Below are positions 50,402-64,000 of a stretch of DNA of 64,000 nt, piece by piece; within the stretch, counting starts at the first letter, position 1; each line of letters opens with the position of its first letter. Source of the DNA: Neorhizobium tomejilense. GTDB lineage: Bacteria > Pseudomonadota > Alphaproteobacteria > Rhizobiales > Rhizobiaceae. The translations under genes and the position numbers were made by a program. Where the stretch lies: NCBI GenBank assembly GCA_002968845.1, contig PVBG01000001.1:434001-498000 (forward strand). Reading direction: 5' to 3'. The notes under the pieces are model-generated. The model worked only from the letters and a program-made list of their open reading frames with translations. It made no database searches and had not been told where the DNA came from.

Positions 50402-51223
50402 GTGGCGAGGTATCGGCGACGCTTCACCATTCTTGGCTGCTCGTCGTCGCCGGGCGTGCCGCGGCTGAATGGCGACTGGGGCGTCTGCGATCCGAACAAC
50501 CCTAGGAACCGCCGCACCCGTGCCGCCTTCATGGTGGAGCAGATCGCGCCCGATGGCGGCAGCACCGTGGTGGTCATCGACACCGGTCCTGACTTTCGCG
50601 AGCAGATGATCTCCGCCAACGTACAGCGGGTCGATGCGGTTCTCTACACCCACGCCCATGCGGATCATCTGCACGGCATCGACGACCTGCGCGGTTATTT
50701 CATCCTGCAGCACCATCGCATCCCGATCTACGCCGATCCGGTCACCATGGACCGGATCCGCCAGGGGTTCGGTTATTGCCTGGAAACGCCGCCGGGCGGC
50801 AATTATCCGCCGATCGTCCGGCCGTTCCTGATCGAGACCATGGACGAGCCGATCGTCGTGGACGGGCCGGGCGGACCGATCCGTTTCCTGCCGCATCTGC
50901 AGGTGCATGGCGACATCCATTCGCTGGGTTTCAGGATCGGCGACGTGGCCTATTGCAGCGATGTCAGCGACTTTCCGCCTGAAAGCGTGGCGAAGCTCGG
51001 CGGGCTCGACGTGCTGATCATCGATACGCTGCAGTACCGATATCACCCGAGCCATCTGTCGCTCGAACAGGCGCTTGAATGGATCGCGAAATTTGCGCCG
51101 AAACACGCGATCCTGACGCATATGCATCTTCCGCTCGACTACGACACCGTGATGGCGCAGACGCCGCAGCATGTCGAACCAGCCTATGACGGTCTCGCGT
51201 TCGAGGTTGTCCTCGATCTCTGA
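50402..51223 (+). CDS. MBL-fold metallo-hydrolase, PhnP-like
   Basis: A 273-residue metallo-beta-lactamase-fold phosphodiesterase-like protein. Metal motif THAHADHLHG (HxHxDH), then CSDVSDFP and a C-terminal ILTHMHLPLDYD. It resembles PhnP (cyclic phosphate phosphodiesterase) but without phn genes nearby, so its substrate is open. Starts at GTG 50402. It is the last host gene before the dif site and prophage, 70 bp downstream. Confidence 0.88.
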   Translation: MARYRRRFTILGCSSSPGVPRLNGDWGVCDPNNPRNRRTRAAFMVEQIAPDGGSTVVVIDTGPDFREQMISANVQRVDAVLYTHAHADHLHGIDDLRGYFILQHHRIPIYADPVTMDRIRQGFGYCLETPPGGNYPPIVRPFLIETMDEPIVVDGPGGPIRFLPHLQVHGDIHSLGFRIGDVAYCSDVSDFPPESVAKLGGLDVLIIDTLQYRYHPSHLSLEQALEWIAKFAPKHAILTHMHLPLDYDTVMAQTPQHVEPAYDGLAFEVVLDL

Positions 51224-51293: not shown

Positions 51294-51321
51294 TAGTTCC
51301 ATAATCTATCTTATGCGATAC
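51294..51321 (-). other. dif: Chromosomal dif site (XerC/XerD recombination site), left prophage boundary
   Basis: Read on the minus strand: XerC arm GTATCGCATAA, centre GATAGA, XerD arm TTATGGAACTA. This agrees with the proteobacterial dif pattern (CGCATAA - 6 bp - TTATG). The XerD arm lies on the host side and the XerC arm on the virus side, so the site is regenerated by integration. FtsK-orienting GGGNAGGG motifs in the preceding 50 kb point to it. Confidence 0.88.
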
Positions 51322-51366
51322 TAAAAGCACAGATAGGGAACATGGCCCAATTTTACACGCTACGCG

Positions 51367-51394
51367 GGAAAATTCGACGCAATGATTTGCGTCG
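51367..51394 (-). terminator. Terminator at the end of the phage transcription unit
   Basis: An 8-bp stem CGACGCAA / TTGCGTCG with loop of 4 (51375-51394) is followed on the minus strand by AATTTT. It lies behind the last phage ORF and before the attachment site. A second copy is at 57794-57821. Confidence 0.6.
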
Positions 51395-51469
51395 ATATCT
51401 TTGCTTGAACTGATTTGCGGTTTTACACAAGGTGCCAAACCGGTACACCAACTCTTTTTTTTGAACCTT

Positions 51470-51958
51470 TCAGGTTCTACGGCCACACCACGGCACATAT
51501 GGCCGTGAGGAGCCATTACCGCGATTGTCTTTTGGCCTTTCTTTACACGTTGGGTTGTCGCGCAACTGGGTTGACCTTACGGGCTCCTTTACGTGTTTCT
51601 CGGCCTTGTTTTGATCTTGGCTCAGAGAGCCGTAATCGCTAGCGCGGACCTGATTTGGCCGCGATGGCGTTTTGCTGATGGCCTGACGGGCGGCGGCGTG
51701 AGCGTCATTGAGACGCTTGACGCCTTCCATTCGGGCCGCCCTTAGTTGCAAGCCGACCTGCTCCATACGGAGTACTCGCTTATACGCGAGCGGGTCGTCT
51801 AGTTCTCGGGCCAGACCTCCGGCCACTCCCAATCTTGGGCCTCGATCCACTCGCTGTGCAATTGGGTCGATAGTGATCCGGGTGCTTGTTCGCTTATTCG
51901 TTTCAGAACGCTCTCCACGCTGGGTAGGTCTGGATTTCTCGGTTTTTCGCTTCGCCAT
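51470..51958 (-). CDS. Basic phage protein overlapping the end of rep, 162 aa (copy 1)
   Basis: Starts at ATG 51958 with AAGGA 8 nt upstream, inside the rep gene, and overlaps its last 160 bp in another frame. The product is rich in Arg, Lys and Gln (MAKRKTEKSRPTQRGERSE at the N-terminus) with a predicted helix in the middle (residues ~50-95) and no membrane segment. A nucleic-acid-binding role is plausible by charge only. The good ribosome-binding site and identity in both copies support it; a shorter product is possible. No family recognised. Confidence 0.5.
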   Translation of the reverse strand: MAKRKTEKSRPTQRGERSETNKRTSTRITIDPIAQRVDRGPRLGVAGGLARELDDPLAYKRVLRMEQVGLQLRAARMEGVKRLNDAHAAARQAISKTPSRPNQVRASDYGSLSQDQNKAEKHVKEPVRSTQLRDNPTCKERPKDNRGNGSSRPYVPWCGRRT

Positions 51959-53004
51959 GCCCTCGTTCCTTTATGGTCGGGGTAGTACCAGAGGGACCCC
52001 CCTTCCCTGAGTTTGACCGTGGGCACGATTGCCCAACGGTCCATTTCGATGTCGCCATCGGAGTATCCGAATGGCGGGTTCATCGGCCATCGTTTCTCAG
52101 GCCGAATGATTTCGGCGTCCTGCTCGCGCAGCCACCGTTGACCGCCGACATAGGTGTAATTTCCACCTTCCTTGCGGGTCTTGCGGTCAAGATATTCATC
52201 GAGGAATTCGCTCGACGGGAAAAACCCGCCTACTTGCTCCTCCCATTTGTCAATGAATGCTTGGCAGAAGATTTCCTTCAGCTTCCCACGAAGCATGAAG
52301 TTGATAATGTTGCCGTTCTTCCGCCTTGCTTGCGCCGGGAACGTATAGAACGGGTCTTGCGGCGCTATGCGCGCATCAACGAACTTCTGCGCTCGCTGGA
52401 CAAAGTATTCTGCGCCTATCGGCGGCAGCTTTGACATAGCGAGCTTTGATTGTGCATGCGGATCATCAACGTCTTTGTTGATGTACTTGCATGCGTACGC
52501 GATTGAACCCTTTTCGTACCCGTTTTTGATCGGGACCCACCAAGAGAAGCCATGCTTCCAACAGGGTTCGTTAAATCGCGTTGCCCACTCGATCGGAACC
52601 TCTACCGGCACGTCGCGAAGCGAACGATGCCACGAGTTCCCGCCGTGATCCCACGTCGAGATGGGTAACGTGTTCTGCCAGAACACTATGCCGTGCCAGT
52701 GCGCCCTACCCTTTTCCGAACCATGTTCGCCGGTTACGAGGTACCGGACGGGATAGCCGCGTTTTCGCAGTTGCTTGAAATACTTTTGCACGTCTGAGTA
52801 AGTCAGGATTGCCGCCCTGGCGTGGCTTTCATTCCCGTCCTCGTCCCTTCCGTAGGTCAGGTCGATTGCGGTACTTGCAACACTGGTCTTACTTTCGGCA
52901 ATGCACCGGCCCACCCATTCGTCGATACGGTTGGACCTGCATTGCCCGCATTTTCGACACGCGACCAATGATCCATCGGCCAGTTTGTTTTTCTCGTTAC
53001 ACAT
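51799..53004 (-). CDS. Microvirus replication initiation protein VP4 (HUH endonuclease), copy 1
   Basis: Nicks the double-stranded form at the origin and starts rolling-circle replication. 401 residues. Near the N-terminus CRKCGQCRSNRIDEWVGRC is the cysteine signature of gokushovirus-type VP4. The metal motif is His102-Trp-His104 in GRAHWHGIVFW. The catalytic tyrosine motif is Y170-ACK-Y174-INK, with two tyrosines four apart as in phiX174 protein A. GAGG lies 8 nt before the ATG. Copy 2 differs at Pro182 (Ala) and Asp217 (Glu). An unusual hairpin-rich region precedes the gene. Confidence 0.93.
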   Translation of the reverse strand: MCNEKNKLADGSLVACRKCGQCRSNRIDEWVGRCIAESKTSVASTAIDLTYGRDEDGNESHARAAILTYSDVQKYFKQLRKRGYPVRYLVTGEHGSEKGRAHWHGIVFWQNTLPISTWDHGGNSWHRSLRDVPVEVPIEWATRFNEPCWKHGFSWWVPIKNGYEKGSIAYACKYINKDVDDPHAQSKLAMSKLPPIGAEYFVQRAQKFVDARIAPQDPFYTFPAQARRKNGNIINFMLRGKLKEIFCQAFIDKWEEQVGGFFPSSEFLDEYLDRKTRKEGGNYTYVGGQRWLREQDAEIIRPEKRWPMNPPFGYSDGDIEMDRWAIVPTVKLREGGSLWYYPDHKGTRAWRSEKPRNPDLPSVESVLKRISEQAPGSLSTQLHSEWIEAQDWEWPEVWPEN

Positions 53005-53217
53005 CGTTTTTGCCTCTTTTCTTGGTCGGTGTCAGTAAATGCACAGTTCGACAAGGGAGAACACACGCACGCGCATACGTATAGGTGAGACTATAGTATG
53101 CGCGTGCTTTAGCATCGGCCAATTCACTTGAATTGGCCGTTGCTTTTGCTTGGGATGCGGGAGGTGACGTTTCGGGAGCCGAACCGTCTACGGTTAATCG
53201 CCCTAGGAGGACCTAGG
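53005..53217. other. Hairpin-rich intergenic region upstream of rep, candidate replication origin
   Basis: Three inverted repeats: GCACGCGCATAC / GTATGCGCGTGC (53067-53107, stem extended by TATAG/CTATA with one bulge and loop of 6); CGGCCAATTCA / TGAATTGGCCG with a 2-nt loop (53116-53139); and CCTAGG repeated around a 4-nt spacer (53202-53217). HUH-replicated ssDNA genomes nick at or near such hairpins. The same DNA must also hold the rep promoter and possibly the terminator of the upstream cistron. The nick site itself is not identified. Confidence 0.5.
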
Positions 53218-53428
53218 AACGCCGTAGGGGTGCGGGGGGCGGCGCTACGCCCCCCTTTGGTTCGCTACGCTCCACGGTCCCGGAGACACGTTCGGCGGGC
53301 CCAATGAGAATGTAGTATTCAGACGGCTCATATGCATAAACCGCCTTCTCATAATCGGCCTCGCCTTCACACAGGAACTCGTCGACGAGAGCCCATGTCT
53401 CCAGATCCATGATGAGAACCTTGATCAT
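53213..53428 (-). CDS. Small acidic phage protein, 71 aa (copy 1)
   Basis: Starts at ATG 53428 with GGAG 8 nt upstream; the start overlaps the peptidase stop as ATGA. N-terminal half is acidic (MIKVLIMDLETWALVDEF, EGEADYEKAVYAYEPSEYY); C-terminal part is Pro/Arg-rich and spans a GC-rich hairpin. Function unknown. Coupled translation with the peptidase supports it as a real gene. Confidence 0.65.
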   Translation of the reverse strand: MIKVLIMDLETWALVDEFLCEGEADYEKAVYAYEPSEYYILIGPAERVSGTVERSEPKGGVAPPPAPLRRS

Positions 53429-54060
53429 TCAGGCGGCTCCATATCTTTCCAGCCTGTAAGCTCGAAGTGTGCGGGGTCATAGAGACCCTTGAACTTCGCG
53501 CCCCATGTGATTTTGACGTCCATTGAATTCGCCACCTCTTGACCGAGGTGGCCGATGATATCCCACGCATGTGGGATCACAGGCCGATCCATATAGCCGA
53601 GAGTACCGTGGATCAGGTCCACGGCGGCAAAGCGATGAGGCCAAAGCCCATCGCTAGGATCGTCCCGGCTATCGCCCTGGACGTATTCCGCCGCCTGATC
53701 CGCATGGGTGCGGACGATGCAGAGCGGGAAAAGAGGAATGCCGAGACTGGCAGCCCTTTTTACCATCTTGTCGGAAAACTCCAAGATAGACGGATGAGCG
53801 CCGACGCGGTTGGCCCGCGTCTGCTGCTGTTGATATTTCGGCGTCTTGAGGAAGCCGGGGTTCCGCATGGCCTCAAGGGCCATGGGAAACGCCTTTGCTG
53901 GATCGCTGTTGCGGTAATCCATGGCGGGCTTAGGATTGCCCGCCAGTTCCGCCCGAAGCTGACTGATCAGGTTCCTGATCGTCTGCTGGTGGAACGCTGG
54001 TGCCCTCCGTTCCTGCGCTTGCTGTTGCAGTGCCAGAAGCGCTCGGAGCCGGAGTGACAT
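53425..54060 (-). CDS. M15-type zinc peptidase (candidate endolysin), copy 1
   Basis: A 211-residue protein. Residues ~85-205 form a D-Ala-D-Ala carboxypeptidase/endopeptidase M15 domain. Zinc ligands are inferred as His142 (LWPHRFAAVDL), Asp148 and His198 (YDPAHFEL); the His-to-Asp spacing is one residue shorter than usual. The ~80-residue N-terminal part is Gln/Arg-rich and separate. No signal peptide, so it would need a holin to reach the peptidoglycan. The start ATG 54060 has GGAGG 12 nt upstream and overlaps the 219-aa gene by 131 bp; a start at 53922 without overlap is possible. Confidence 0.87.
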   Translation of the reverse strand: MSLRLRALLALQQQAQERRAPAFHQQTIRNLISQLRAELAGNPKPAMDYRNSDPAKAFPMALEAMRNPGFLKTPKYQQQQTRANRVGAHPSILEFSDKMVKRAASLGIPLFPLCIVRTHADQAAEYVQGDSRDDPSDGLWPHRFAAVDLIHGTLGYMDRPVIPHAWDIIGHLGQEVANSMDVKITWGAKFKGLYDPAHFELTGWKDMEPPE

Positions 54061-54589
54061 TGTTCTTCATAGCCTCCATCATCGCGATGAACTGCGCTCT
54101 GTCGGCTTCCATCTGCTGTTGCAACATCAGTGAGTTGTGACGAGCGGCCCGCTCGATTTCGAGGATACGCGGATCGCGTTCCTCACGCTCGTACATACGC
54201 GCGAACGACACCGGATCAACACTCTCGATGTTGAACGCCGTATTGTCGTAGGTGTCGAGCCAGATACCCCCGCCCATGAGGCGGAGGCAGAAGGACCCCC
54301 GGTAATAGAACTCGATCTGTTCCAGACCGGGTTCAACGTGCGCGAGGAAGCGCACGAATTCCGGTCCTTCATGATGAGCGGTAACCCGACCTGGCTGATA
54401 CTGCCCGTTCTCGTCATAGGACGGATACTGGTACTCGACCGGCACGATATACATGTTGACCGGCTTCTCAGCCAGAATGCGCATCTTGATAAGACGCGCC
54501 TGATCCTCGTTCCCCTGCGGGTGAGCGAATGTCGCGTCTTCCAGTTCGCCAAGCTCAACGAACGCTTGGATCATACCCAACTTTTGCAT
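53930..54589 (-). CDS. Phage protein of unknown function, 219 aa (copy 1)
   Basis: Starts at ATG 54589 with AGGAA 7 nt upstream. An ordered domain occupies residues ~30-130 (MYIVPVEYQYPSYDENGQ, EQIEFYYRGSFCLRLMGGG), a helix at ~140-175 (LEIERAARHNSLMLQQQMEADRAQF), then a disordered Ser/Gly/Pro tail. Position between capsid and peptidase and the helix-plus-tail design would suit an internal scaffolding protein (VP3), but I do not recognise the family. Its 3' end overlaps the peptidase gene. Confidence 0.65.
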   Translation of the reverse strand: MQKLGMIQAFVELGELEDATFAHPQGNEDQARLIKMRILAEKPVNMYIVPVEYQYPSYDENGQYQPGRVTAHHEGPEFVRFLAHVEPGLEQIEFYYRGSFCLRLMGGGIWLDTYDNTAFNIESVDPVSFARMYEREERDPRILEIERAARHNSLMLQQQMEADRAQFIAMMEAMKNNVTPAPSASGTATASAGTEGTSVPPADDQEPDQSASGGTGGQS

Positions 54590-54625
54590 CGCACTTTCCT
54601 TTAGAAGGGTGCGACGCCATGGTCG

Positions 54626-54715
54626 CTACCCGTGATTGAGAAAATCCGCATACAGGAACATAAACAGCACAACTGATATGACCACGTACGCGGTAATTCG
54701 AACTACCTTAGCCAT
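54626..54715 (-). CDS. Small membrane peptide, 29 aa (copy 1)
   Basis: ATG 54715 has a strong GGAGG with 5-nt spacing. The product is one membrane helix (ITAYVVISVVLFMFLYADF) flanked by a basic N-terminus (MAKVVR). The ribosome-binding site lies in the 3' arm of a hairpin (54722-54757), so translation may be controlled by that fold. Candidate lysis or membrane-acting peptide by analogy with small phage proteins; no homology claimed. It sits directly behind the capsid gene. Confidence 0.65.
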   Translation of the reverse strand: MAKVVRITAYVVISVVLFMFLYADFLNHG

Positions 54716-54721
54716 TAGGCC

Positions 54722-54757
54722 CTCCGGTTAGGTTGCAACTTGCAACCCATACCGGAG
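54722..54757 (-). promoter_or_regulatory. Hairpin masking the start of the 29-aa gene
   Basis: Nested inverted repeats: outer CTCCGGT / ACCGGAG and inner GGTTGCAA / TTGCAACC. The 3' arm contains the GGAGG of the next gene. An 11-codon open frame starts at ATG 54750 inside the hairpin and stops at TAATG, sharing a base with the 29-aa start. May act as an attenuator or translational switch, or as a weak terminator; there is no T-run. Confidence 0.6.
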
Positions 54758-54770
54758 AGCCCGTTTCGCG

Positions 54771-56459
54771 TCAAACGCCCTTCGGAATACGGGTCTGATC
54801 GACCTTCGCCATCACCTCCGTATAGGCGTTATCGTTCTCGAGAAGGCGTTCACCGAACACGGTGTTGCCCTCGATAATCGCCGCGCCCTGTAGCTCGACC
54901 TCACCCACGTCTTGGTTCGTGACCACGAACGGGAGCGTGTTGAAGGTCTCGGCAATCATGAAGTCAGGGCCGAGCGATGGGTTAGCCACCTCGACAACCC
55001 AGAAGTGCTGACGCTCTTCGTTGAAGGTGTTGTCAGGTGCCGGCTTGAACCACTTGCCGCCAATACGTGTATTGGAGTGCTGCCATTTGTGGTTCAGCGG
55101 GTAGTACCCGAACAGGCCACCGGGAACGGAATGCGACGTATCGATTTCGCCATTGCTCATGCGCTCGACCTTCTGAGGGTCGAGATCGTCGCGCATCGCG
55201 TTCGGCAGCTTGTCGGGATCCGTGATGAACAACAGCGGATCGCGTCCGCGTTCAAACAACTGTTCCGGCAGGATTTCCGCCGTCACCATGACAATGCCGC
55301 CCGTAGGGCAGCGCGGCAGAACGATATTCAGGTCGCAAAGCGCCGAGCCGTTAACAACGGCATCGGTCAGGTTTGCGCCATCGGTTGCCCACCGCTTTTC
55401 GATGCCGAAGACTTCCGTCTTGTCGGCAATCTTGATCGGCTGTTGCCACATCTTGTCGGGAACGCTGACGCCCTGCATCAGCAGGTCGATAATCCAGCTT
55501 TCCGGCAGTCCTTCGAACTGCGCTTTCAGCTGCGCGTACCACTGCGTTCGCTTGGCAAGTTCGATATTGGCGAGCGAAATCTTGACACCGGCCGTCGCCA
55601 TGTCCGCGAAGATTTTCGGGCGATACACGCCCCCGACGTTTTCGAGATCGAGCCTGACGCCCGTGGTCGATGCGTCATTACCGCCTCCTGTAAGGTTGGC
55701 GATGTTCGCGTAGCTACCGGCAAGCCCGCCACTTTCCTTGACGGCTACCGGACCGGCTGCGTCGCGGGTATTACCGGTCATGCCGATACCCCGAACAGTA
55801 ATGTTCGGATTGGTGAAGGTCAGATCGACTGACCCTTCCATGGCGAGATCGTCCCAGTCGGGAACGACATACTTGTACTGCTGATGCTGCCAGAAGGCAG
55901 GAGCCAGCGTCGTGGCGGTCATGAGCCGCTTCTTCGCGGCCCACAGGGTTTCGGACCGGTTTTTCATCCGGAAATTCTGGATGAGATTGTACGCCTCGAT
56001 ATAGCACGTGTTGATCACGTCCGTCGGCGCCGCATGGAAGCCCATATATTTGTGGATCGGGATAGACCCGACCGCACCGGCCACCATGCTTTCGAAGAAC
56101 GGCGTAACCGGAACGCCGTTGGCGTTCGCCTTCTTCATATACGAACGGTCGAATTCGTCCCGTCCGCCGTCGAAACGCTCGAACGCGAGGAACGGGACGA
56201 ACCATGCCTGGAACCGGCACTGAATGCCGTTCTTGATGACCTCGGCGGTTTCCATCAGGTCCACTTTGCAGTGGAGCATAGAGTTGCGAAGCGTGTCTTC
56301 ACGCAGCAACGGAAACGCCGTGATCGGCACCACCTTGCCCGCAGGCATGGAGGTGGCAACGACCTGATTGATCTGGCGCACAGAGCGCGGGATCATGATG
56401 GGCGTTGTGTTCGTGCGCGAAATGTCGCGAATTTCATTCGCTGTAAGCTGTCTGGTCAC
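54771..56459 (-). CDS. Microvirus major capsid protein VP1 (copy 1)
   Basis: Forms the T=1 icosahedral shell. 562 residues with the N-terminus MTRQLTANEIRDISRTNTT and the beta-strand pattern of the microvirus F/VP1 jelly roll; large insertions around residues 200-300 are the variable surface region seen in this family. Starts with GTG 56459, overlapping the J-like stop as GTGA; AAGGG lies 8 nt upstream. Highly expressed position behind VP2. Identical in copy 2. Confidence 0.93.
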   Translation of the reverse strand: MTRQLTANEIRDISRTNTTPIMIPRSVRQINQVVATSMPAGKVVPITAFPLLREDTLRNSMLHCKVDLMETAEVIKNGIQCRFQAWFVPFLAFERFDGGRDEFDRSYMKKANANGVPVTPFFESMVAGAVGSIPIHKYMGFHAAPTDVINTCYIEAYNLIQNFRMKNRSETLWAAKKRLMTATTLAPAFWQHQQYKYVVPDWDDLAMEGSVDLTFTNPNITVRGIGMTGNTRDAAGPVAVKESGGLAGSYANIANLTGGGNDASTTGVRLDLENVGGVYRPKIFADMATAGVKISLANIELAKRTQWYAQLKAQFEGLPESWIIDLLMQGVSVPDKMWQQPIKIADKTEVFGIEKRWATDGANLTDAVVNGSALCDLNIVLPRCPTGGIVMVTAEILPEQLFERGRDPLLFITDPDKLPNAMRDDLDPQKVERMSNGEIDTSHSVPGGLFGYYPLNHKWQHSNTRIGGKWFKPAPDNTFNEERQHFWVVEVANPSLGPDFMIAETFNTLPFVVTNQDVGEVELQGAAIIEGNTVFGERLLENDNAYTEVMAKVDQTRIPKGV

Positions 56460-56581
56460 TTACGTTTCCCTTTCTTGCCTCTAAGCGCGAACCACATTTT
56501 TGTGGCCGCTCGTTTGATGTTTTCAGCGCGACGTTCACAGCCGTCGCATTTCACGGGAGCTTTGGGGGTTGGCTTCACCAT
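56456..56581 (-). CDS. Small basic protein, J/VP8-like (copy 1)
   Basis: 41 residues from ATG 56581, which shares a base with the VP2 stop (TGATG), to a stop inside the capsid start. The composition is strongly basic, ending FALRGKKGKRK, and contains CDGC. Small basic proteins in this genome position (phiX174 J, gokushovirus VP8) bind the packaged ssDNA and the inner capsid. Assignment is from size, charge and place; sequence similarity is not established. A longer in-frame version would overlap VP2. Confidence 0.6.
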   Translation of the reverse strand: MVKPTPKAPVKCDGCERRAENIKRAATKMWFALRGKKGKRK

Positions 56582-57399
56582 CAGAAGCGCACCCCCGAAC
56601 GAGTACGCGCGCCGCCTCCCGGCGGAGCCGGATAGGCGCGTCCGTTGCGCATGAGACCGCGCGGCATGCGCGGCTTGTTCCACCAATCCGAAATACTCCT
56701 TCGGATCATGTGGCCCATCTGATCGGGTCCGACCGGAAGCCCGCGCTTTTCAAACCATCTGTCGATGTTGTGCTGCATATCGCGTGGCGCGACATACCAG
56801 AACGCCGGGCTAAGCAGATCATCCCCCAACCGGTCCTCAATATCGGACGCGTTAGGGGTATTCGGGTCGGGCTCCGCACCTTTCGGATACGGGTTAGTGA
56901 CGGACGGCTTTTTGCCTTCGTCGTATCCCATATCCGATTTGAACGCCCCCGGGACGCTAGCCGTCTGCTTATGAGACGTAGCGCCGAGGCGTGGGACAAG
57001 CTGCCGGCTTACCTTCGTCCCCGTATAGGTCCGAGGTTGAAACAGCCCACCTGGGGCATTCGCCGCCCGGTCACTGATCTGCATAGACAGCAGCGCAGTG
57101 TCCGGTTCCCGCTTTTTGGCTAAAATCGGGTCCAGCTTGTCGCCCAACGCTTGGCCGAGAACCCCGCCGAAATTCGACAGGGCCTCCGGCAACTGAGACA
57201 CCGTTGGGGCGGTCGTCGTGGTGAACCCCGCCGACCCGCCGTTTCGCAATGCGGTCAGGGGATTAAACCCTGCCGCACGCGCGTCCGCCACCATTTCCCC
57301 GTAGTTAATACGGGTCGTGGTCTCCTGCTTTTTCTCCTTCTTCTTACCGAAGAGACCGAGCAGGCCGCTGACGCCCGCGCCGATGATTTGACCCCACAT
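56581..57399 (-). CDS. Microvirus DNA pilot protein VP2 (copy 1)
   Basis: 272 residues. The N-terminal glycine-rich hydrophobic segment (MWGQIIGAGVSGLLGLFGKKK) is followed by the diagnostic VP2 sequence MVADARAAGFNPLTALRNGG. In related viruses VP2/H forms a tube that takes the DNA across the envelope. The ATG at 57399 shares a base with the holin-like stop (TGATG). The C-terminus is Arg/Gly-rich. Identical in copy 2. Confidence 0.93.
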   Translation of the reverse strand: MWGQIIGAGVSGLLGLFGKKKEKKQETTTRINYGEMVADARAAGFNPLTALRNGGSAGFTTTTAPTVSQLPEALSNFGGVLGQALGDKLDPILAKKREPDTALLSMQISDRAANAPGGLFQPRTYTGTKVSRQLVPRLGATSHKQTASVPGAFKSDMGYDEGKKPSVTNPYPKGAEPDPNTPNASDIEDRLGDDLLSPAFWYVAPRDMQHNIDRWFEKRGLPVGPDQMGHMIRRSISDWWNKPRMPRGLMRNGRAYPAPPGGGARTRSGVRF

Positions 57400-57683
57400 C
57401 AGCGTGACGGCTCATAGAACGCCGCGTCGGCACTGCCCTTGCCCAGAAGGTCAAGCGCCTGCCTCATCCCGGCGTTTTCGGCCTTGCGATTGCTACGCCA
57501 TGCAAGGCCGAGATCGAACGCCAGACCGAATACAACGCCGATTGCTGTAAGCAATTGGTCGATGCTATCGGCTGGCAGTCCCTTCGATGCCAAGTATACC
57601 GCAAGTGCGGTACCTGCCCTTCGAAGAAGAGGGGAGACCACAAGCATAATAAGCTTGCGGTCTATAATGCCTTTTAACGTCAT
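57399..57683 (-). CDS. Holin-like membrane protein, Pam3-gp28 type (copy 1)
   Basis: 94 residues. ATG 57683 has GGAGGTG 4-6 nt upstream. A hydrophobic segment with AGTALAVYLASKGLP, then TAIGVVFGLAFDLGLAWRSNRKAENAG, resembles Pam3-gp28-family phage holins in layout: helix, short Asp-containing turn (DSIDQ), helix, basic tail. It would release or activate the M15 peptidase. Function is inferred. It is the first gene of the structural cistron, only 48 bp from the attachment site. Confidence 0.7.
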   Translation of the reverse strand: MTLKGIIDRKLIMLVVSPLLRRAGTALAVYLASKGLPADSIDQLLTAIGVVFGLAFDLGLAWRSNRKAENAGMRQALDLLGKGSADAAFYEPSR

Positions 57684-57720
57684 GCGGCACCTCCGTTTTA
57701 CGGTGCGCTCGCGTTAAAGT

Positions 57721-57748
57721 TGGTTCCAGTCTCTATCTTATGCGATAC
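57721..57748 (-). other. Internal attachment site between prophage copies (attP-like dif)
   Basis: Minus strand: XerC arm GTATCGCATAA and centre GATAGA are identical to the site at 51294-51321; the XerD arm is GACTGGAACCA, agreeing with the host arm at 7 of 11 positions. This is what the circular viral genome must carry. It lies exactly 6,427 bp from the first site. Confidence 0.88.
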
Positions 57749-57896
57749 TAAAAGCACAGATAGGGAACATGGCCCAATTTTACACGCTACGCGGGAAAAT
57801 TCGACGCAATGATTTGCGTCGATATCTTTGCTTGAACTGATTTGCGGTTTTACACAAGGTGCCAAACCGGTACACCAACTCTTTTTTTTGAACCTT

Positions 57897-58385
57897 TCAG
57901 GTTCTACGGCCACACCACGGCACATATGGCCGTGAGGAGCCATTACCGCGATTGTCTTTTGGCCTTTCTTTACACGTTGGGTTGTCGCGCAACTGGGTTG
58001 ACCTTACGGGCTCCTTTACGTGTTTCTCGGCCTTGTTTTGATCTTGGCTCAGAGAGCCGTAATCGCTAGCGCGGACCTGATTTGGCCGCGATGGCGTTTT
58101 GCTGATGGCCTGACGGGCGGCGGCGTGAGCGTCATTGAGACGCTTGACGCCTTCCATTCGGGCCGCCCTTAGTTGCAAGCCGACCTGCTCCATACGGAGT
58201 ACTCGCTTATACGCGAGCGGGTCGTCTAGTTCTCGGGCCAGACCTCCGGCCACTCCCAATCTTGGGCCTCGATCCACTCGCTGTGCAATTGGGTCGATAG
58301 TGATCCGGGTGCTTGTTCGCTTATTCGTTTCAGAACGCTCTCCACGCTGGGTAGGTCTGGATTTCTCGGTTTTTCGCTTCGCCAT
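57897..58385 (-). CDS. Basic phage protein overlapping the end of rep, 162 aa (copy 2)
   Basis: Identical to the copy 1 protein at 51470-51958, with the same ribosome-binding site and overlap with rep. Here the frame ends well inside phage DNA and the downstream neighbour is the internal attachment site instead of host DNA. Confidence 0.5.
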   Translation of the reverse strand: MAKRKTEKSRPTQRGERSETNKRTSTRITIDPIAQRVDRGPRLGVAGGLARELDDPLAYKRVLRMEQVGLQLRAARMEGVKRLNDAHAAARQAISKTPSRPNQVRASDYGSLSQDQNKAEKHVKEPVRSTQLRDNPTCKERPKDNRGNGSSRPYVPWCGRRT

Positions 58386-59431
58386 GCCCTCGTTCCTTTA
58401 TGGTCGGGGTAGTACCAGAGGGACCCCCCTTCCCTGAGTTTGACCGTGGGCACGATTGCCCAACGGTCCATTTCGATGTCGCCATCGGAGTATCCGAATG
58501 GCGGGTTCATCGGCCATCGTTTCTCAGGCCGAATGATTTCGGCGTCCTGCTCGCGCAGCCACCGTTGACCGCCGACATAGGTGTAATTTCCACCTTCCTT
58601 GCGGGTCTTGCGGTCAAGATATTCATCGAGGAATTCGCTCGACGGGAAAAACCCGCCTACTTGCTCCTCCCATTTGTCAATGAATGCTTGGCAGAAGATT
58701 TCCTTCAGCTTCCCACGAAGCATGAAGTTGATAATGTTGCCGTTCTTCCGCCTTGCTTGCGCCGGGAACGTATAGAACGGTTCTTGCGGCGCTATGCGCG
58801 CATCAACGAACTTCTGCGCTCGCTGGACAAAGTATTCTGCGCCTATCGGCGGCAGCTTTGACATAGCGAGCTTTGATTGTGCATGCGCATCATCAACGTC
58901 TTTGTTGATGTACTTGCATGCGTACGCGATTGAACCCTTTTCGTACCCGTTTTTGATCGGGACCCACCAAGAGAAGCCATGCTTCCAACAGGGTTCGTTA
59001 AATCGCGTTGCCCACTCGATCGGAACCTCTACCGGCACGTCGCGAAGCGAACGATGCCACGAGTTCCCGCCGTGATCCCACGTCGAGATGGGTAACGTGT
59101 TCTGCCAGAACACTATGCCGTGCCAGTGCGCCCTACCCTTTTCCGAACCATGTTCGCCGGTTACGAGGTACCGGACGGGATAGCCGCGTTTTCGCAGTTG
59201 CTTGAAATACTTTTGCACGTCTGAGTAAGTCAGGATTGCCGCCCTGGCGTGGCTTTCATTCCCGTCCTCGTCCCTTCCGTAGGTCAGGTCGATTGCGGTA
59301 CTTGCAACACTGGTCTTACTTTCGGCAATGCACCGGCCCACCCATTCGTCGATACGGTTGGACCTGCATTGCCCGCATTTTCGACACGCGACCAATGATC
59401 CATCGGCCAGTTTGTTTTTCTCGTTACACAT
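58226..59431 (-). CDS. Microvirus replication initiation protein VP4 (HUH endonuclease), copy 2
   Basis: 401 residues, differing from copy 1 only at residue 182 (Ala for Pro) and residue 217 (Glu for Asp). Residue 182 is eight positions after the second motif tyrosine (Tyr174). HUH and tyrosine motifs are intact in both copies, so both should be active unless one substitution impairs folding. Confidence 0.93.
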   Translation of the reverse strand: MCNEKNKLADGSLVACRKCGQCRSNRIDEWVGRCIAESKTSVASTAIDLTYGRDEDGNESHARAAILTYSDVQKYFKQLRKRGYPVRYLVTGEHGSEKGRAHWHGIVFWQNTLPISTWDHGGNSWHRSLRDVPVEVPIEWATRFNEPCWKHGFSWWVPIKNGYEKGSIAYACKYINKDVDDAHAQSKLAMSKLPPIGAEYFVQRAQKFVDARIAPQEPFYTFPAQARRKNGNIINFMLRGKLKEIFCQAFIDKWEEQVGGFFPSSEFLDEYLDRKTRKEGGNYTYVGGQRWLREQDAEIIRPEKRWPMNPPFGYSDGDIEMDRWAIVPTVKLREGGSLWYYPDHKGTRAWRSEKPRNPDLPSVESVLKRISEQAPGSLSTQLHSEWIEAQDWEWPEVWPEN

Positions 59432-59644
59432 CGTTTTTGCCTCTTTTCTTGGTCGGTGTCAGTAAATGCACAGTTCGACAAGGGAGAACACACGCACGCG
59501 CATACGTATAGGTGAGACTATAGTATGCGCGTGCTTTAGCATCGGCCAATTCACTTGAATTGGCCGTTGCTTTTGCTTGGGATGCGGGAGGTGACGTTTC
59601 GGGAGCCGAACCGTCTACGGTTAATCGCCCTAGGAGGACCTAGG
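59432..59644. other. Hairpin-rich region upstream of rep, candidate origin (copy 2)
   Basis: Same three hairpins as copy 1, at 59494-59534, 59543-59566 and 59629-59644. Two complete origins in tandem would let one Rep protein release a unit-length circle from the array by rolling-circle replication, without recombination. Confidence 0.5.
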
Positions 59645-59855
59645 AACGCCGTAGGGGTGCGGGGGGCGGCGCTACGCCCCCCTTTGGTTCGCTACGCTCC
59701 ACGGTCCCGGAGACACGTTCGGCGGGCCCAATGAGAATGTAGTATTCAGACGGCTCATATGCATAAACCGCCTTCTCATAATCGGCCTCGCCTTCACACA
59801 GGAACTCGTCGACGAGAGCCCATGTCTCCAGATCCATGATGAGAACCTTGATCAT
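59640..59855 (-). CDS. Small acidic phage protein, 71 aa (copy 2)
   Basis: Identical to the copy 1 protein at 53213-53428, including the ATGA overlap with the peptidase stop. Function unknown. Confidence 0.65.
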   Translation of the reverse strand: MIKVLIMDLETWALVDEFLCEGEADYEKAVYAYEPSEYYILIGPAERVSGTVERSEPKGGVAPPPAPLRRS

Positions 59856-60487
59856 TCAGGCGGCTCCATATCTTTCCAGCCTGTAAGCTCGAAGTGTGCG
59901 GGGTCATAGAGACCCTTGAACTTCGCGCCCCATGTGATTTTGACGTCCATTGAATTCGCCACCTCTTGACCGAGGTGGCCGATGATATCCCACGCATGTG
60001 GGATCACAGGCCGATCCATATAGCCGAGAGTACCGTGGATCAGGTCCACGGCGGCAAAGCGATGAGGCCAAAGCCCATCGCTAGGATCGTCCCGGCTATC
60101 GCCCTGGACGTATTCCGCCGCCTGATCCGCATGGGTGCGGACGATGCAGAGCGGGAAAAGAGGAATGCCGAGACTGGCAGCCCTTTTTACCATCTTGTCG
60201 GAAAACTCCAAGATAGACGGATGAGCGCCGACGCGGTTGGCCCGCGTCTGCTGCTGTTGATATTTCGGCGTCTTGAGGAAGCCGGGGTTCCGCATGGCCT
60301 CAAGGGCCATGGGAAACGCCTTTGCTGGATCGCTGTTGCGGTAATCCATGGCGGGCTTAGGATTGCCCGCCAGTTCCGCCCGAAGCTGACTGATCAGGTT
60401 CCTGATCGTCTGCTGGTGGAACGCTGGTGCCCTCCGTTCCTGCGCTTGCTGTTGCAGTGCCAGAAGCGCTCGGAGCCGGAGTGACAT
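59852..60487 (-). CDS. M15-type zinc peptidase (candidate endolysin), copy 2
   Basis: Identical to the copy 1 peptidase (His142, Asp148, His198). The start at 60487 overlaps the end of the 219-aa gene by 131 bp as in copy 1. Confidence 0.87.
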   Translation of the reverse strand: MSLRLRALLALQQQAQERRAPAFHQQTIRNLISQLRAELAGNPKPAMDYRNSDPAKAFPMALEAMRNPGFLKTPKYQQQQTRANRVGAHPSILEFSDKMVKRAASLGIPLFPLCIVRTHADQAAEYVQGDSRDDPSDGLWPHRFAAVDLIHGTLGYMDRPVIPHAWDIIGHLGQEVANSMDVKITWGAKFKGLYDPAHFELTGWKDMEPPE

Positions 60488-61016
60488 TGTTCTTCATAGC
60501 CTCCATCATCGCGATGAACTGCGCTCTGTCGGCTTCCATCTGCTGTTGCAACATCAGTGAGTTGTGACGAGCGGCCCGCTCGATTTCGAGGATACGCGGA
60601 TCGCGTTCCTCACGCTCGTACATACGCGCGAACGACACCGGATCAACACTCTCGATGTTGAACGCCGTATTGTCGTAGGTGTCGAGCCAGATACCCCCGC
60701 CCATGAGGCGGAGGCAGAAGGACCCCCGGTAATAGAACTCGATCTGTTCCAGACCGGGTTCAACGTGCGCGAGGAAGCGCACGAATTCCGGTCCTTCATG
60801 ATGAGCGGTAACCCGACCTGGCTGATACTGCCCGTTCTCGTCATAGGACGGATACTGGTACTCGACCGGCACGATATACATGTTGACCGGCTTCTCAGCC
60901 AGAATGCGCATCTTGATAAGACGCGCCTGATCCTCGTTCCCCTGCGGGTGAGCGAATGTCGCGTCTTCCAGTTCGCCAAGCTCAACGAACGCTTGGATCA
61001 TACCCAACTTTTGCAT
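60357..61016 (-). CDS. Phage protein of unknown function, 219 aa (copy 2)
   Basis: Identical to the protein at 53930-54589; possible scaffolding protein by position and helix-plus-disordered-tail design. Confidence 0.65.
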   Translation of the reverse strand: MQKLGMIQAFVELGELEDATFAHPQGNEDQARLIKMRILAEKPVNMYIVPVEYQYPSYDENGQYQPGRVTAHHEGPEFVRFLAHVEPGLEQIEFYYRGSFCLRLMGGGIWLDTYDNTAFNIESVDPVSFARMYEREERDPRILEIERAARHNSLMLQQQMEADRAQFIAMMEAMKNNVTPAPSASGTATASAGTEGTSVPPADDQEPDQSASGGTGGQS

Positions 61017-61052
61017 CGCACTTTCCTTTAGAAGGGTGCGACGCCATGGTCG

Positions 61053-61142
61053 CTACCCGTGATTGAGAAAATCCGCATACAGGAACATAAACAGCACAAC
61101 TGATATGACCACGTACGCGGTAATTCGAACTACCTTAGCCAT
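61053..61142 (-). CDS. Small membrane peptide, 29 aa (copy 2)
   Basis: Identical to the copy 1 peptide at 54626-54715, with the same strong GGAGG and the masking hairpin at 61149-61184. Confidence 0.65.
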   Translation of the reverse strand: MAKVVRITAYVVISVVLFMFLYADFLNHG

Positions 61143-61197
61143 TAGGCCCTCCGGTTAGGTTGCAACTTGCAACCCATACCGGAGAGCCCGTTTCGCG

Positions 61198-62886
61198 TCA
61201 AACGCCCTTCGGAATACGGGTCTGATCGACCTTCGCCATCACCTCCGTATAGGCGTTATCGTTCTCGAGAAGGCGTTCACCGAACACGGTGTTGCCCTCG
61301 ATAATCGCCGCGCCCTGTAGCTCGACCTCACCCACGTCTTGGTTCGTGACCACGAACGGGAGCGTGTTGAAGGTCTCGGCAATCATGAAGTCAGGGCCGA
61401 GCGATGGGTTAGCCACCTCGACAACCCAGAAGTGCTGACGCTCTTCGTTGAAGGTGTTGTCAGGTGCCGGCTTGAACCACTTGCCGCCAATACGTGTATT
61501 GGAGTGCTGCCATTTGTGGTTCAGCGGGTAGTACCCGAACAGGCCACCGGGAACGGAATGCGACGTATCGATTTCGCCATTGCTCATGCGCTCGACCTTC
61601 TGAGGGTCGAGATCGTCGCGCATCGCGTTCGGCAGCTTGTCGGGATCCGTGATGAACAACAGCGGATCGCGTCCGCGTTCAAACAACTGTTCCGGCAGGA
61701 TTTCCGCCGTCACCATGACAATGCCGCCCGTAGGGCAGCGCGGCAGAACGATATTCAGGTCGCAAAGCGCCGAGCCGTTAACAACGGCATCGGTCAGGTT
61801 TGCGCCATCGGTTGCCCACCGCTTTTCGATGCCGAAGACTTCCGTCTTGTCGGCAATCTTGATCGGCTGTTGCCACATCTTGTCGGGAACGCTGACGCCC
61901 TGCATCAGCAGGTCGATAATCCAGCTTTCCGGCAGTCCTTCGAACTGCGCTTTCAGCTGCGCGTACCACTGCGTTCGCTTGGCAAGTTCGATATTGGCGA
62001 GCGAAATCTTGACACCGGCCGTCGCCATGTCCGCGAAGATTTTCGGGCGATACACGCCCCCGACGTTTTCGAGATCGAGCCTGACGCCCGTGGTCGATGC
62101 GTCATTACCGCCTCCTGTAAGGTTGGCGATGTTCGCGTAGCTACCGGCAAGCCCGCCACTTTCCTTGACGGCTACCGGACCGGCTGCGTCGCGGGTATTA
62201 CCGGTCATGCCGATACCCCGAACAGTAATGTTCGGATTGGTGAAGGTCAGATCGACTGACCCTTCCATGGCGAGATCGTCCCAGTCGGGAACGACATACT
62301 TGTACTGCTGATGCTGCCAGAAGGCAGGAGCCAGCGTCGTGGCGGTCATGAGCCGCTTCTTCGCGGCCCACAGGGTTTCGGACCGGTTTTTCATCCGGAA
62401 ATTCTGGATGAGATTGTACGCCTCGATATAGCACGTGTTGATCACGTCCGTCGGCGCCGCATGGAAGCCCATATATTTGTGGATCGGGATAGACCCGACC
62501 GCACCGGCCACCATGCTTTCGAAGAACGGCGTAACCGGAACGCCGTTGGCGTTCGCCTTCTTCATATACGAACGGTCGAATTCGTCCCGTCCGCCGTCGA
62601 AACGCTCGAACGCGAGGAACGGGACGAACCATGCCTGGAACCGGCACTGAATGCCGTTCTTGATGACCTCGGCGGTTTCCATCAGGTCCACTTTGCAGTG
62701 GAGCATAGAGTTGCGAAGCGTGTCTTCACGCAGCAACGGAAACGCCGTGATCGGCACCACCTTGCCCGCAGGCATGGAGGTGGCAACGACCTGATTGATC
62801 TGGCGCACAGAGCGCGGGATCATGATGGGCGTTGTGTTCGTGCGCGAAATGTCGCGAATTTCATTCGCTGTAAGCTGTCTGGTCAC
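61198..62886 (-). CDS. Microvirus major capsid protein VP1 (copy 2)
   Basis: Identical to the copy 1 capsid protein (562 aa, GTG start). Full identity of the surface-loop region shows that the two copies have not diversified in host-range-related parts. Confidence 0.93.
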   Translation of the reverse strand: MTRQLTANEIRDISRTNTTPIMIPRSVRQINQVVATSMPAGKVVPITAFPLLREDTLRNSMLHCKVDLMETAEVIKNGIQCRFQAWFVPFLAFERFDGGRDEFDRSYMKKANANGVPVTPFFESMVAGAVGSIPIHKYMGFHAAPTDVINTCYIEAYNLIQNFRMKNRSETLWAAKKRLMTATTLAPAFWQHQQYKYVVPDWDDLAMEGSVDLTFTNPNITVRGIGMTGNTRDAAGPVAVKESGGLAGSYANIANLTGGGNDASTTGVRLDLENVGGVYRPKIFADMATAGVKISLANIELAKRTQWYAQLKAQFEGLPESWIIDLLMQGVSVPDKMWQQPIKIADKTEVFGIEKRWATDGANLTDAVVNGSALCDLNIVLPRCPTGGIVMVTAEILPEQLFERGRDPLLFITDPDKLPNAMRDDLDPQKVERMSNGEIDTSHSVPGGLFGYYPLNHKWQHSNTRIGGKWFKPAPDNTFNEERQHFWVVEVANPSLGPDFMIAETFNTLPFVVTNQDVGEVELQGAAIIEGNTVFGERLLENDNAYTEVMAKVDQTRIPKGV

Positions 62887-63008
62887 TTACGTTTCCCTTT
62901 CTTGCCTCTAAGCGCGAACCACATTTTTGTGGCCGCTCGTTTGATGTTTTCAGCGCGACGTTCACAGCCGTCGCATTTCACGGGAGCTTTGGGGGTTGGC
63001 TTCACCAT
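62883..63008 (-). CDS. Small basic protein, J/VP8-like (copy 2)
   Basis: Identical to the copy 1 protein at 56456-56581 (41 aa), with the same one-base and four-base overlaps with its neighbours. Confidence 0.6.
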   Translation of the reverse strand: MVKPTPKAPVKCDGCERRAENIKRAATKMWFALRGKKGKRK

Positions 63009-63826
63009 CAGAAGCGCACCCCCGAACGAGTACGCGCGCCGCCTCCCGGCGGAGCCGGATAGGCGCGTCCGTTGCGCATGAGACCGCGCGGCATGCGCGG
63101 CTTGTTCCACCAATCCGAAATACTCCTTCGGATCATGTGGCCCATCTGATCGGGTCCGACCGGAAGCCCGCGCTTTTCAAACCATCTGTCGATGTTGTGC
63201 TGCATATCGCGTGGCGCGACATACCAGAACGCCGGGCTAAGCAGATCATCCCCCAACCGGTCCTCAATATCGGACGCGTTAGGGGTATTCGGGTCGGGCT
63301 CCGCACCTTTCGGATACGGGTTAGTGACGGACGGCTTTTTGCCTTCGTCGTATCCCATATCCGATTTGAACGCCCCCGGGACGCTAGCCGTCTGCTTATG
63401 AGACGTAGCGCCGAGGCGTGGGACAAGCTGCCGGCTTACCTTCGTCCCCGTATAGGTCCGAGGTTGAAACAGCCCACCTGGGGCATTCGCCGCCCGGTCA
63501 CTGATCTGCATAGACAGCAGCGCAGTGTCCGGTTCCCGCTTTTTGGCTAAAATCGGGTCCAGCTTGTCGCCCAACGCTTGGCCGAGAACCCCGCCGAAAT
63601 TCGACAGGGCCTCCGGCAACTGAGACACCGTTGGGGCGGTCGTCGTGGTGAACCCCGCCGACCCGCCGTTTCGCAATGCGGTCAGGGGATTAAACCCTGC
63701 CGCACGCGCGTCCGCCACCATTTCCCCGTAGTTAATACGGGTCGTGGTCTCCTGCTTTTTCTCCTTCTTCTTACCGAAGAGACCGAGCAGGCCGCTGACG
63801 CCCGCGCCGATGATTTGACCCCACAT
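63008..63826 (-). CDS. Microvirus DNA pilot protein VP2 (copy 2)
   Basis: Identical to the copy 1 VP2 (272 aa) with the diagnostic AAGFNPLTALRNGG segment. Confidence 0.93.
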   Translation of the reverse strand: MWGQIIGAGVSGLLGLFGKKKEKKQETTTRINYGEMVADARAAGFNPLTALRNGGSAGFTTTTAPTVSQLPEALSNFGGVLGQALGDKLDPILAKKREPDTALLSMQISDRAANAPGGLFQPRTYTGTKVSRQLVPRLGATSHKQTASVPGAFKSDMGYDEGKKPSVTNPYPKGAEPDPNTPNASDIEDRLGDDLLSPAFWYVAPRDMQHNIDRWFEKRGLPVGPDQMGHMIRRSISDWWNKPRMPRGLMRNGRAYPAPPGGGARTRSGVRF

Positions 63827-64000
63827 CAGCGTGACGGCTCATAGAACGCCGCGTCGGCACTGCCCTTGCCCAGAAGGTCAAGCGCCTGCCTCATCCCGGC
63901 GTTTTCGGCCTTGCGATTGCTACGCCATGCAAGGCCGAGATCGAACGCCAGACCGAATACAACGCCGATTGCTGTAAGCAATTGGTCGATGCTATCGGCT
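63826..64000 (-). CDS. Holin-like membrane protein (copy 2, 5' end outside window)
   Basis: The C-terminal 57 or so codons of the holin-like gene of copy 1 recur here; the start would be at about 64110. The gene is cut only by the end of the window. Confidence 0.68.
   Translation of the reverse strand, partial: ADSIDQLLTAIGVVFGLAFDLGLAWRSNRKAENAGMRQALDLLGKGSADAAFYEPSR

What the first reader, a model, noticed from the sequence alone, without database searches (positions are those of the whole stretch)
51305..64000. Two head-to-tail copies of a complete microvirus genome in a rhizobial chromosome
The sequence shows a 6,427-bp unit repeated in direct tandem. It encodes capsid protein, VP2 pilot protein and HUH Rep, the hallmark set of Microviridae, and has no integrase. 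Microvirus prophages are known in Bacteroidetes and enterobacteria, and free microviruses of Alphaproteobacteria have been described. A tandem lysogen in Rhizobiaceae is unusual. A tandem array would let Rep release unit circles by replication from one origin to the next, as well as by Xer excision.
Basis: partly seen in the sequence, partly recalled or inferred. Interest (0 to 1): 0.93.

Follow-up and report, generated by a model that had tools for sequence, protein, structure and literature searches.

The report
Microvirus prophage pair at chromosome terminus
A small single-stranded-DNA phage sits in the dif site at the end-point of a Rhizobium-type chromosome, where host enzymes likely inserted it, and the assembly shows two head-to-tail copies that may be a true tandem or one inserted copy plus a free circle, because the genome was likely put together from short reads that cannot tell the two apart.

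Summary
The repeat is real in the sequence: two direct copies of a 6,427-base unit, 99.9% identical, ending about 170 bases past the window. Each copy holds a microvirus gene set of the Rhizobium chaparrovirus type; no integrase was found. The array lies in the chromosomal dif site: GC skew and GGGNAGGG polarity flip there, and relatives show the site empty. The phage site matches dif in the XerC arm (10 of 11) and spacer (6 of 6) but is degenerate in the XerD arm, the layout of TLCphi of Vibrio. In 13 of 14 prophages with a pair of sites the two spacers are identical, although nine spacers occur on chromosomes, chromids and plasmids. The physical tandem is not proven: the assembly broke at a 1.2-kb tuf repeat with a 127-base shared end and holds one LSU rRNA gene, so it looks like a short-read assembly that cannot separate a dimer from one insert plus a circle. 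None of 13 microvirus prophages seen in closed replicons was doubled. Two missense differences in rep show two lasting variants, which favours two stable copies; I call it about even. Dif-integrated microviruses are known, also in Alphaproteobacteria; a tandem would be the new part.

The parts
51295..51322 (-). left junction: complete dif (phage XerC arm, spacer AGATAG, host XerD arm)
   Evidence: 27 of 28 match to the inferred host dif; pattern and empty sites in relatives
57722..57749 (-). middle junction: phage attachment site, degenerate XerD arm
51306..57732 (-). microvirus unit, copy 1 (6,427 bases, core to core)
57733..64000 (-). microvirus unit, copy 2; runs to 64,159 on the contig, right junction at 64,149-64,176 lies outside the window
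51470..51958 (-). 162-aa ORF overlapping the 3' end of rep, conserved in relatives (copy 2: 57,897-58,385)
51799..53004 (-). HUH replication initiator, copy 1
   Evidence: PF23343 5.7e-14 and phrog_942 2.1e-31; HWH and YACKY motifs
58226..59431 (-). HUH replication initiator, copy 2, two missense differences from copy 1
53005..53230 (-). conserved stretch upstream of rep: origin or promoter candidate, not told apart
   Evidence: alignment with six relatives
53213..53428 (-). 71-aa ORF, function unknown (copy 2: 59,640-59,855)
   Evidence: no family
53425..54060 (-). endolysin-like protein, M15-type (copy 2: 59,852-60,487)
   Evidence: phrog_465 2.1e-07; Pfam M15 hit 0.021, under its cut-off; relatives annotated endolysin or M15
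53930..54589 (-). 219-aa protein, conserved in relatives (copy 2: 60,357-61,016)
   Evidence: no family
54771..56459 (-). major capsid protein, copy 1
   Evidence: 80.3% to Tbat2_43 and 73.8% to RHph_TM24 capsids; phrog_514 3.2e-07; profile matches solved Ebor capsid 9FFG, 3.9e-11
61198..62886 (-). major capsid protein, copy 2
56456..56686 (-). 76-aa ORF (TTG start), C-terminal part conserved (copy 2: 62,883-63,113)
56581..57399 (-). VP2, pilot-protein-like (copy 2: 63,008-63,826)
   Evidence: weak pilot-protein profiles 0.0042 and above; 61.9% over 1-153 to Tbat2_88 pilot protein
57399..57683 (-). holin-like protein (copy 2 ends at 64,110, past the window)
   Evidence: Pfam PF23987 0.0021, under its cut-off; conserved in relatives
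50402..51223 (+). host metallo-hydrolase gene left of dif
   Evidence: lies beside dif in 26 of 30 relatives' loci

Best explanation
This is a microvirus prophage of the Rhizobium chaparrovirus lineage in the chromosomal dif site, likely inserted by host XerC/XerD, and its head-to-tail second copy is best read as, though not proven to be, a later insertion into the dif that the first one restored. Shown: the phage site shares 10 of 11 XerC-arm bases and the whole spacer with dif and differs in the XerD arm, and the left junction is again a complete dif. Inferred: insertion works as for TLCphi (dsDNA circle, XerD-first, reversible); a later phage can use the restored dif, so copies line up head to tail and the right-hand copy would be the older; circles come out by Xer recombination between neighbouring sites, and in a dimer Rep could also nick one origin and stop at the next. 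Not settled: whether the second copy is adjacent (about even odds) or a free circle in the sequenced culture.
For: Three junctions sharing a 13-base core in the pattern that Xer insertion predicts. Dif identity: core within 3 mismatches in 42 of 57 genus genomes, exact in 20, reversed control none; host gene beside it in 26 of 30 loci and empty sites; GC skew positive in 13 of 15 windows to the left and negative in 8 of 8 from the array on, GGGNAGGG 25:1 against 1:13. Two strong XerC-model matches in the genome. Pairs of dif-like sites round 14 of 17 prophage loci, spacer identical in 13 of 14. Two sequence variants of rep in the assembly.
Against: For the tandem: the assembly looks short-read, and 0 of 13 microvirus prophages on closed or single-contig replicons are doubled. 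For the Xer model: both XerC-model matches are under that model's cut-off; 2 of 17 loci show one site or none; most free relatives scanned (12 of 14) show no motif above random sequence. No activity was tested.
Confidence: 0.6

Rival explanations
1. One integrated prophage plus a circular, excised or replicating phage genome in the sequenced culture; the assembler joined the loop into two copies.
For: Short-read signs: 127-base shared contig end at tuf, one LSU rRNA gene on a 6,452-base contig. Circular phage DNA was found in almost all surviving colonies with gokushovirus EC6098 (PMC7062461, passages). 0 of 13 prophages on closed replicons doubled.
Against: The two copies differ at two sites in rep; a circle excised from the insert would normally have its parent's sequence. 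EC6098 carriage gave superinfection immunity, which makes a second, different phage in the same clone less likely.
Confidence: 0.4
2. Pure assembly or polishing error: one integrated copy only, written twice.
For: Short-read assembly of a kind that broke at a 1.2-kb repeat.
Against: The middle junction differs from both host junctions and two rep variants exist; a lone copy offers no template for either.
Confidence: 0.07

Closest known systems
Rhizobium chaparroviruses (RHph_TM24 group, PMC9512667, passages)
   Same: Gene order and proteins: capsid 73.8%, Rep 53%, M15-type 59%, VP2 42%, holin-like 46%; dif-like motif in the rep-holin gap in the same direction
   Different: TM24 is known as a plaque-forming isolate; its motif has another spacer (ATCTGT); no insertion shown
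Enterogokushovirus EC6098 (PMC7062461, passages)
   Same: Microvirus without integrase that inserts at dif by XerC/XerD; downstream site variable in spacer and XerD arm
   Different: Other microvirus group, about 4.4 kb, no tandem mentioned; 6 of 6 related E. coli prophages single
Ebor of Rhodobacter capsulatus (PMC11980548, passages)
   Same: Temperate microvirus of an alphaproteobacterium flanked by dif motifs; its capsid structure matches our capsid profile
   Different: Inserted in a RuBisCO operon, not at the terminus; distant capsid
TLCphi and CTXphi of Vibrio cholerae (review PMC4246890, passages)
   Same: attP layout as TLCphi; tandem arrays at dif as CTXphi
   Different: Filamentous phage or satellite, no icosahedral capsid; CTXphi site is a folded pair of inverted sites, not seen here

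Membership tests
Microviridae | single jelly-roll major capsid protein of the family | tested here: met
   73.8-80.3% to annotated microvirus capsids; phrog_514; profile to solved Ebor capsid. Pfam Phage_F did not ring, but rang in no control either
Microviridae | HUH replication initiator | tested here: met
   PF23343, phrog_942; HWH and YxxKY motifs in both copies
Microviridae | pilot protein VP2 | tested here: met
   weak profile hits, firm match to annotated pilot protein of Tbat2_88
Microviridae | circular ssDNA genome in an icosahedral particle | not testable with these tools
   needs particles
Element exploiting Xer recombination, TLCphi class | XerC arm and spacer of attP as in dif, XerD arm degenerate | tested here: met
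   1 of 11, 0 of 6 and 4 of 11 mismatches between the two outer sites; middle site
Element exploiting Xer recombination, TLCphi class | XerD-first, reversible exchange | not testable with these tools
   inferred from layout only
Element exploiting Xer recombination, VGJphi class | no spacer homology on the XerD side | tested here: not met
   spacer identical, 6 of 6
Element exploiting Xer recombination, CTXphi class | two inverted dif-like sites in attP | tested here: not met
   only same-direction sites near the window's junctions at the scan threshold
Tandem prophage array at dif | two or more copies adjacent in the chromosome | tested here: inconclusive
   present in the assembly; assembly looks short-read

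The most novel reading that the evidence does not exclude
A microvirus that lives as a tandem array at dif: each insertion rebuilds dif and so invites the next copy, and the array lets Rep peel off unit circles from origin to origin without excision, the CTXphi strategy reached by an icosahedral phage; across relatives the attP spacer is matched to one replicon's dif and so chooses chromosome, chromid or conjugative plasmid as home.
Probability: 0.25. Interest if true: 0.7.

Novelty: new member of a known kind. Interest (0 to 1): 0.45.

Why it matters
Microviruses were long taken as mainly lytic. This locus and its relatives indicate that a lineage with plaque-forming rhizobial isolates inserts at dif, with identical spacers in 13 of 14 site pairs, on chromosomes and plasmids alike. 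If the tandem holds, a second ssDNA phage group would share the array strategy known from CTXphi. It also shows a general trap: in short-read genomes a tandem prophage and a prophage plus circle look alike.

Tried and rejected
Pfam Phage_F search of the genome: no hit, but none in the controls either, so uninformative. VGJphi-type and CTXphi-type sites were considered and not met. Origin motif: a conserved stretch upstream of rep was found, but nothing tells origin from promoter. Contigs that begin at dif in other genomes of the genus were first suspected to be hidden phage arrays; by eye the ends look like insertion-sequence ends, so this was dropped; not tested against an IS library. Dif-like motif in free relatives: clear for TM24 (0 of 30 random sequences of the same dinucleotide make-up reach it), near-clear for Tortoise microvirus 47 (1 of 30); 12 of 14 scanned were not above random, the three chicoviruses among them. 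Host sites with TM24's exact spacer exist but are rare: 3 of 394 family genomes, by my reading of 17 genomes with a match at up to one mismatch. A 73-residue capsid fragment at a contig end (G163, L021) gave no dif-like site at the first scan's threshold and was left out of the 17 loci. L017, L076 (one site) and L082 (none) are in the 17 loci but not in the 14 pairs.

Full report
What is there. Bases 51,296-57,749 and 57,723-64,176 (window numbering continued on the same contig) are direct copies with period 6,427. The contig goes on into host sequence on both sides, so the assembled array is two units. No other copy was found in the 6.56-Mb, 72-contig genome. On the minus strand each unit reads: holin-like protein, VP2, a 76-aa ORF, capsid, a 219-aa protein, endolysin-like protein, a 71-aa ORF, Rep and a 162-aa protein. 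Rep passes its Pfam cut-off; capsid and endolysin match PHROGs; the pilot and holin calls are weak by profile but all of these are conserved, in order, in annotated microviruses. The nearest phages in the phage collection are four Flyfo microviruses from bat faeces (capsid 74.5-80.3%) and chaparrovirus RHph_TM24 (73.8%).

Where it sits. The three junctions share 13 bases, TCGCATAAGATAG on the minus strand. The left junction reads as a full dif, the middle one as pure phage site, the right one as host XerC arm plus phage XerD arm. The 23-base dif core is present within three mismatches in 42 of 57 genus genomes and exactly in 20; the reversed control gave none in any. The left-flank metallo-hydrolase gene lies beside dif in 26 of the 30 loci returned, and in L051 and L052 the window's right flank follows directly: an empty site. 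In 10-kb steps GC skew is positive in 13 of 15 windows to the left and negative in 8 of 8 from the array to the contig end; GGGNAGGG goes from 25:1 over 151 kb on the left to 1:13 over 73 kb on the right, the pattern described for dif (PMC13342612, passages). Two strong matches to the XerC model lie on another contig, both under that model's cut-off; I take them as XerC and XerD (inference).

How insertion likely works. In the classes reviewed in PMC4246890 (passages), VGJphi lacks spacer homology on the XerD side, CTXphi folds two inverted sites in single strand, and TLCphi has the XerC arm and spacer of dif with a degenerate XerD arm. Between the window's two outer sites there are 1 of 11, 0 of 6 and 4 of 11 mismatches in XerC arm, spacer and XerD arm: the TLC layout. 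Since the left junction is a complete dif again, a second circle could enter there. That XerD acts first, and that excision occurs, is inferred.

Relatives. Seventeen prophage loci were examined, this one included: 14 carry a pair of dif-like sites, one (L017) is a contig cut at both sites, one (L076) shows one site, one (L082) none. In 13 of the 14 pairs the two spacers are identical while nine spacer strings occur. Six of the loci lie on plasmid or chromid records, three of them conjugative Agrobacterium plasmids. The site points one way relative to the capsid gene in the window, CSW-27, BG4 and L017, the closer relatives, and the other way in 11 pairs of more distant ones; the single site of the distant L076 breaks that rule. 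Free phage TM24 carries a strong dif-like motif in its rep-holin gap, in the same direction as here.

Is the tandem real? Contigs C33 and C41 share exactly 127 bases at one end of C41 and 113 at the other, both in tuf, so a repeat of about 1.2 kb broke the assembly. The genome shows one LSU rRNA gene, on a 6,452-base contig. This is how a short-read, k=127 assembly looks (inference; no record of the method was seen). Such data cannot bridge the 5.3 kb of identical sequence between the rep differences and the unit's end, so dimer and insert-plus-circle are equal to the assembler, and which variant lies beside which flank is unsure too. Against a tandem: 7 of 7 relatives on closed or single-contig replicons are single, and so are the 6 of 5,426 complete E. 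coli genomes that match one gokushovirus capsid gene. For it: the copies differ at two sites 107 bases apart, both missense in Rep. At one site copy 1 has D, as 12 of 16 aligned relatives do, and copy 2 has E, as none does; the other site (P against A) is variable, P in 4 and A in 3 of 16, with P in the nearest relative Tbat2_88. So one change is clearly derived in copy 2, the other cannot be polarised. An excised circle would normally carry its parent's sequence. I call adjacency about even.

What is known. Dif-integrated microviruses are in print: Bacteroidetes proviruses (PMC3091885, passages), EC6098 with XerC/XerD tests (PMC7062461, passages), Ebor in Rhodobacter (PMC11980548, passages), and prophages in or near Rhizobiaceae (PMC9512667 and PMC9239249, passages). 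The word tandem has no occurrence in PMC3091885, PMC7062461, PMC9512667 or PMC9239249. Three searches for tandem or Xer-linked microvirus prophages (listings of 20 of 24, 20 of 66 and 20 of 42 papers) showed me no title that describes one; one listed paper holding both words (PMC13236601) was not opened. Earlier papers on alphaproteobacterial microviruses cited in these were not read.

Verdict. A well-supported new member of a known kind, at a clearly placed dif, with an unproven but testable tandem.

Noticed in passing
L047, L054, L061, L065, L071 (dif loci of other genus genomes): Contigs of several drafts begin just outside the XerC arm of dif, with ends that look by eye like insertion sequences. 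Elements of the IS1202 family are known to target dif, and two of R. etli are listed in that family (PMC10132070, abstract and one passage).
   Followed up: partly
G000:C16:37714-37729 (L027): A second dif-like palindrome in the window's genome with another spacer (AGTACT by my reading), perhaps the Xer site of a second replicon.
   Followed up: no
L078, L079, L081: Related microvirus prophages lie at dif-like sites of conjugative Agrobacterium plasmids, so they could travel with the plasmid.
   Followed up: partly
L029:1816-1843: Plaque-forming chaparrovirus RHph_TM24 carries a dif-like site in its rep-holin gap, which suggests that it can insert too.
   Followed up: partly
   Followed up: no
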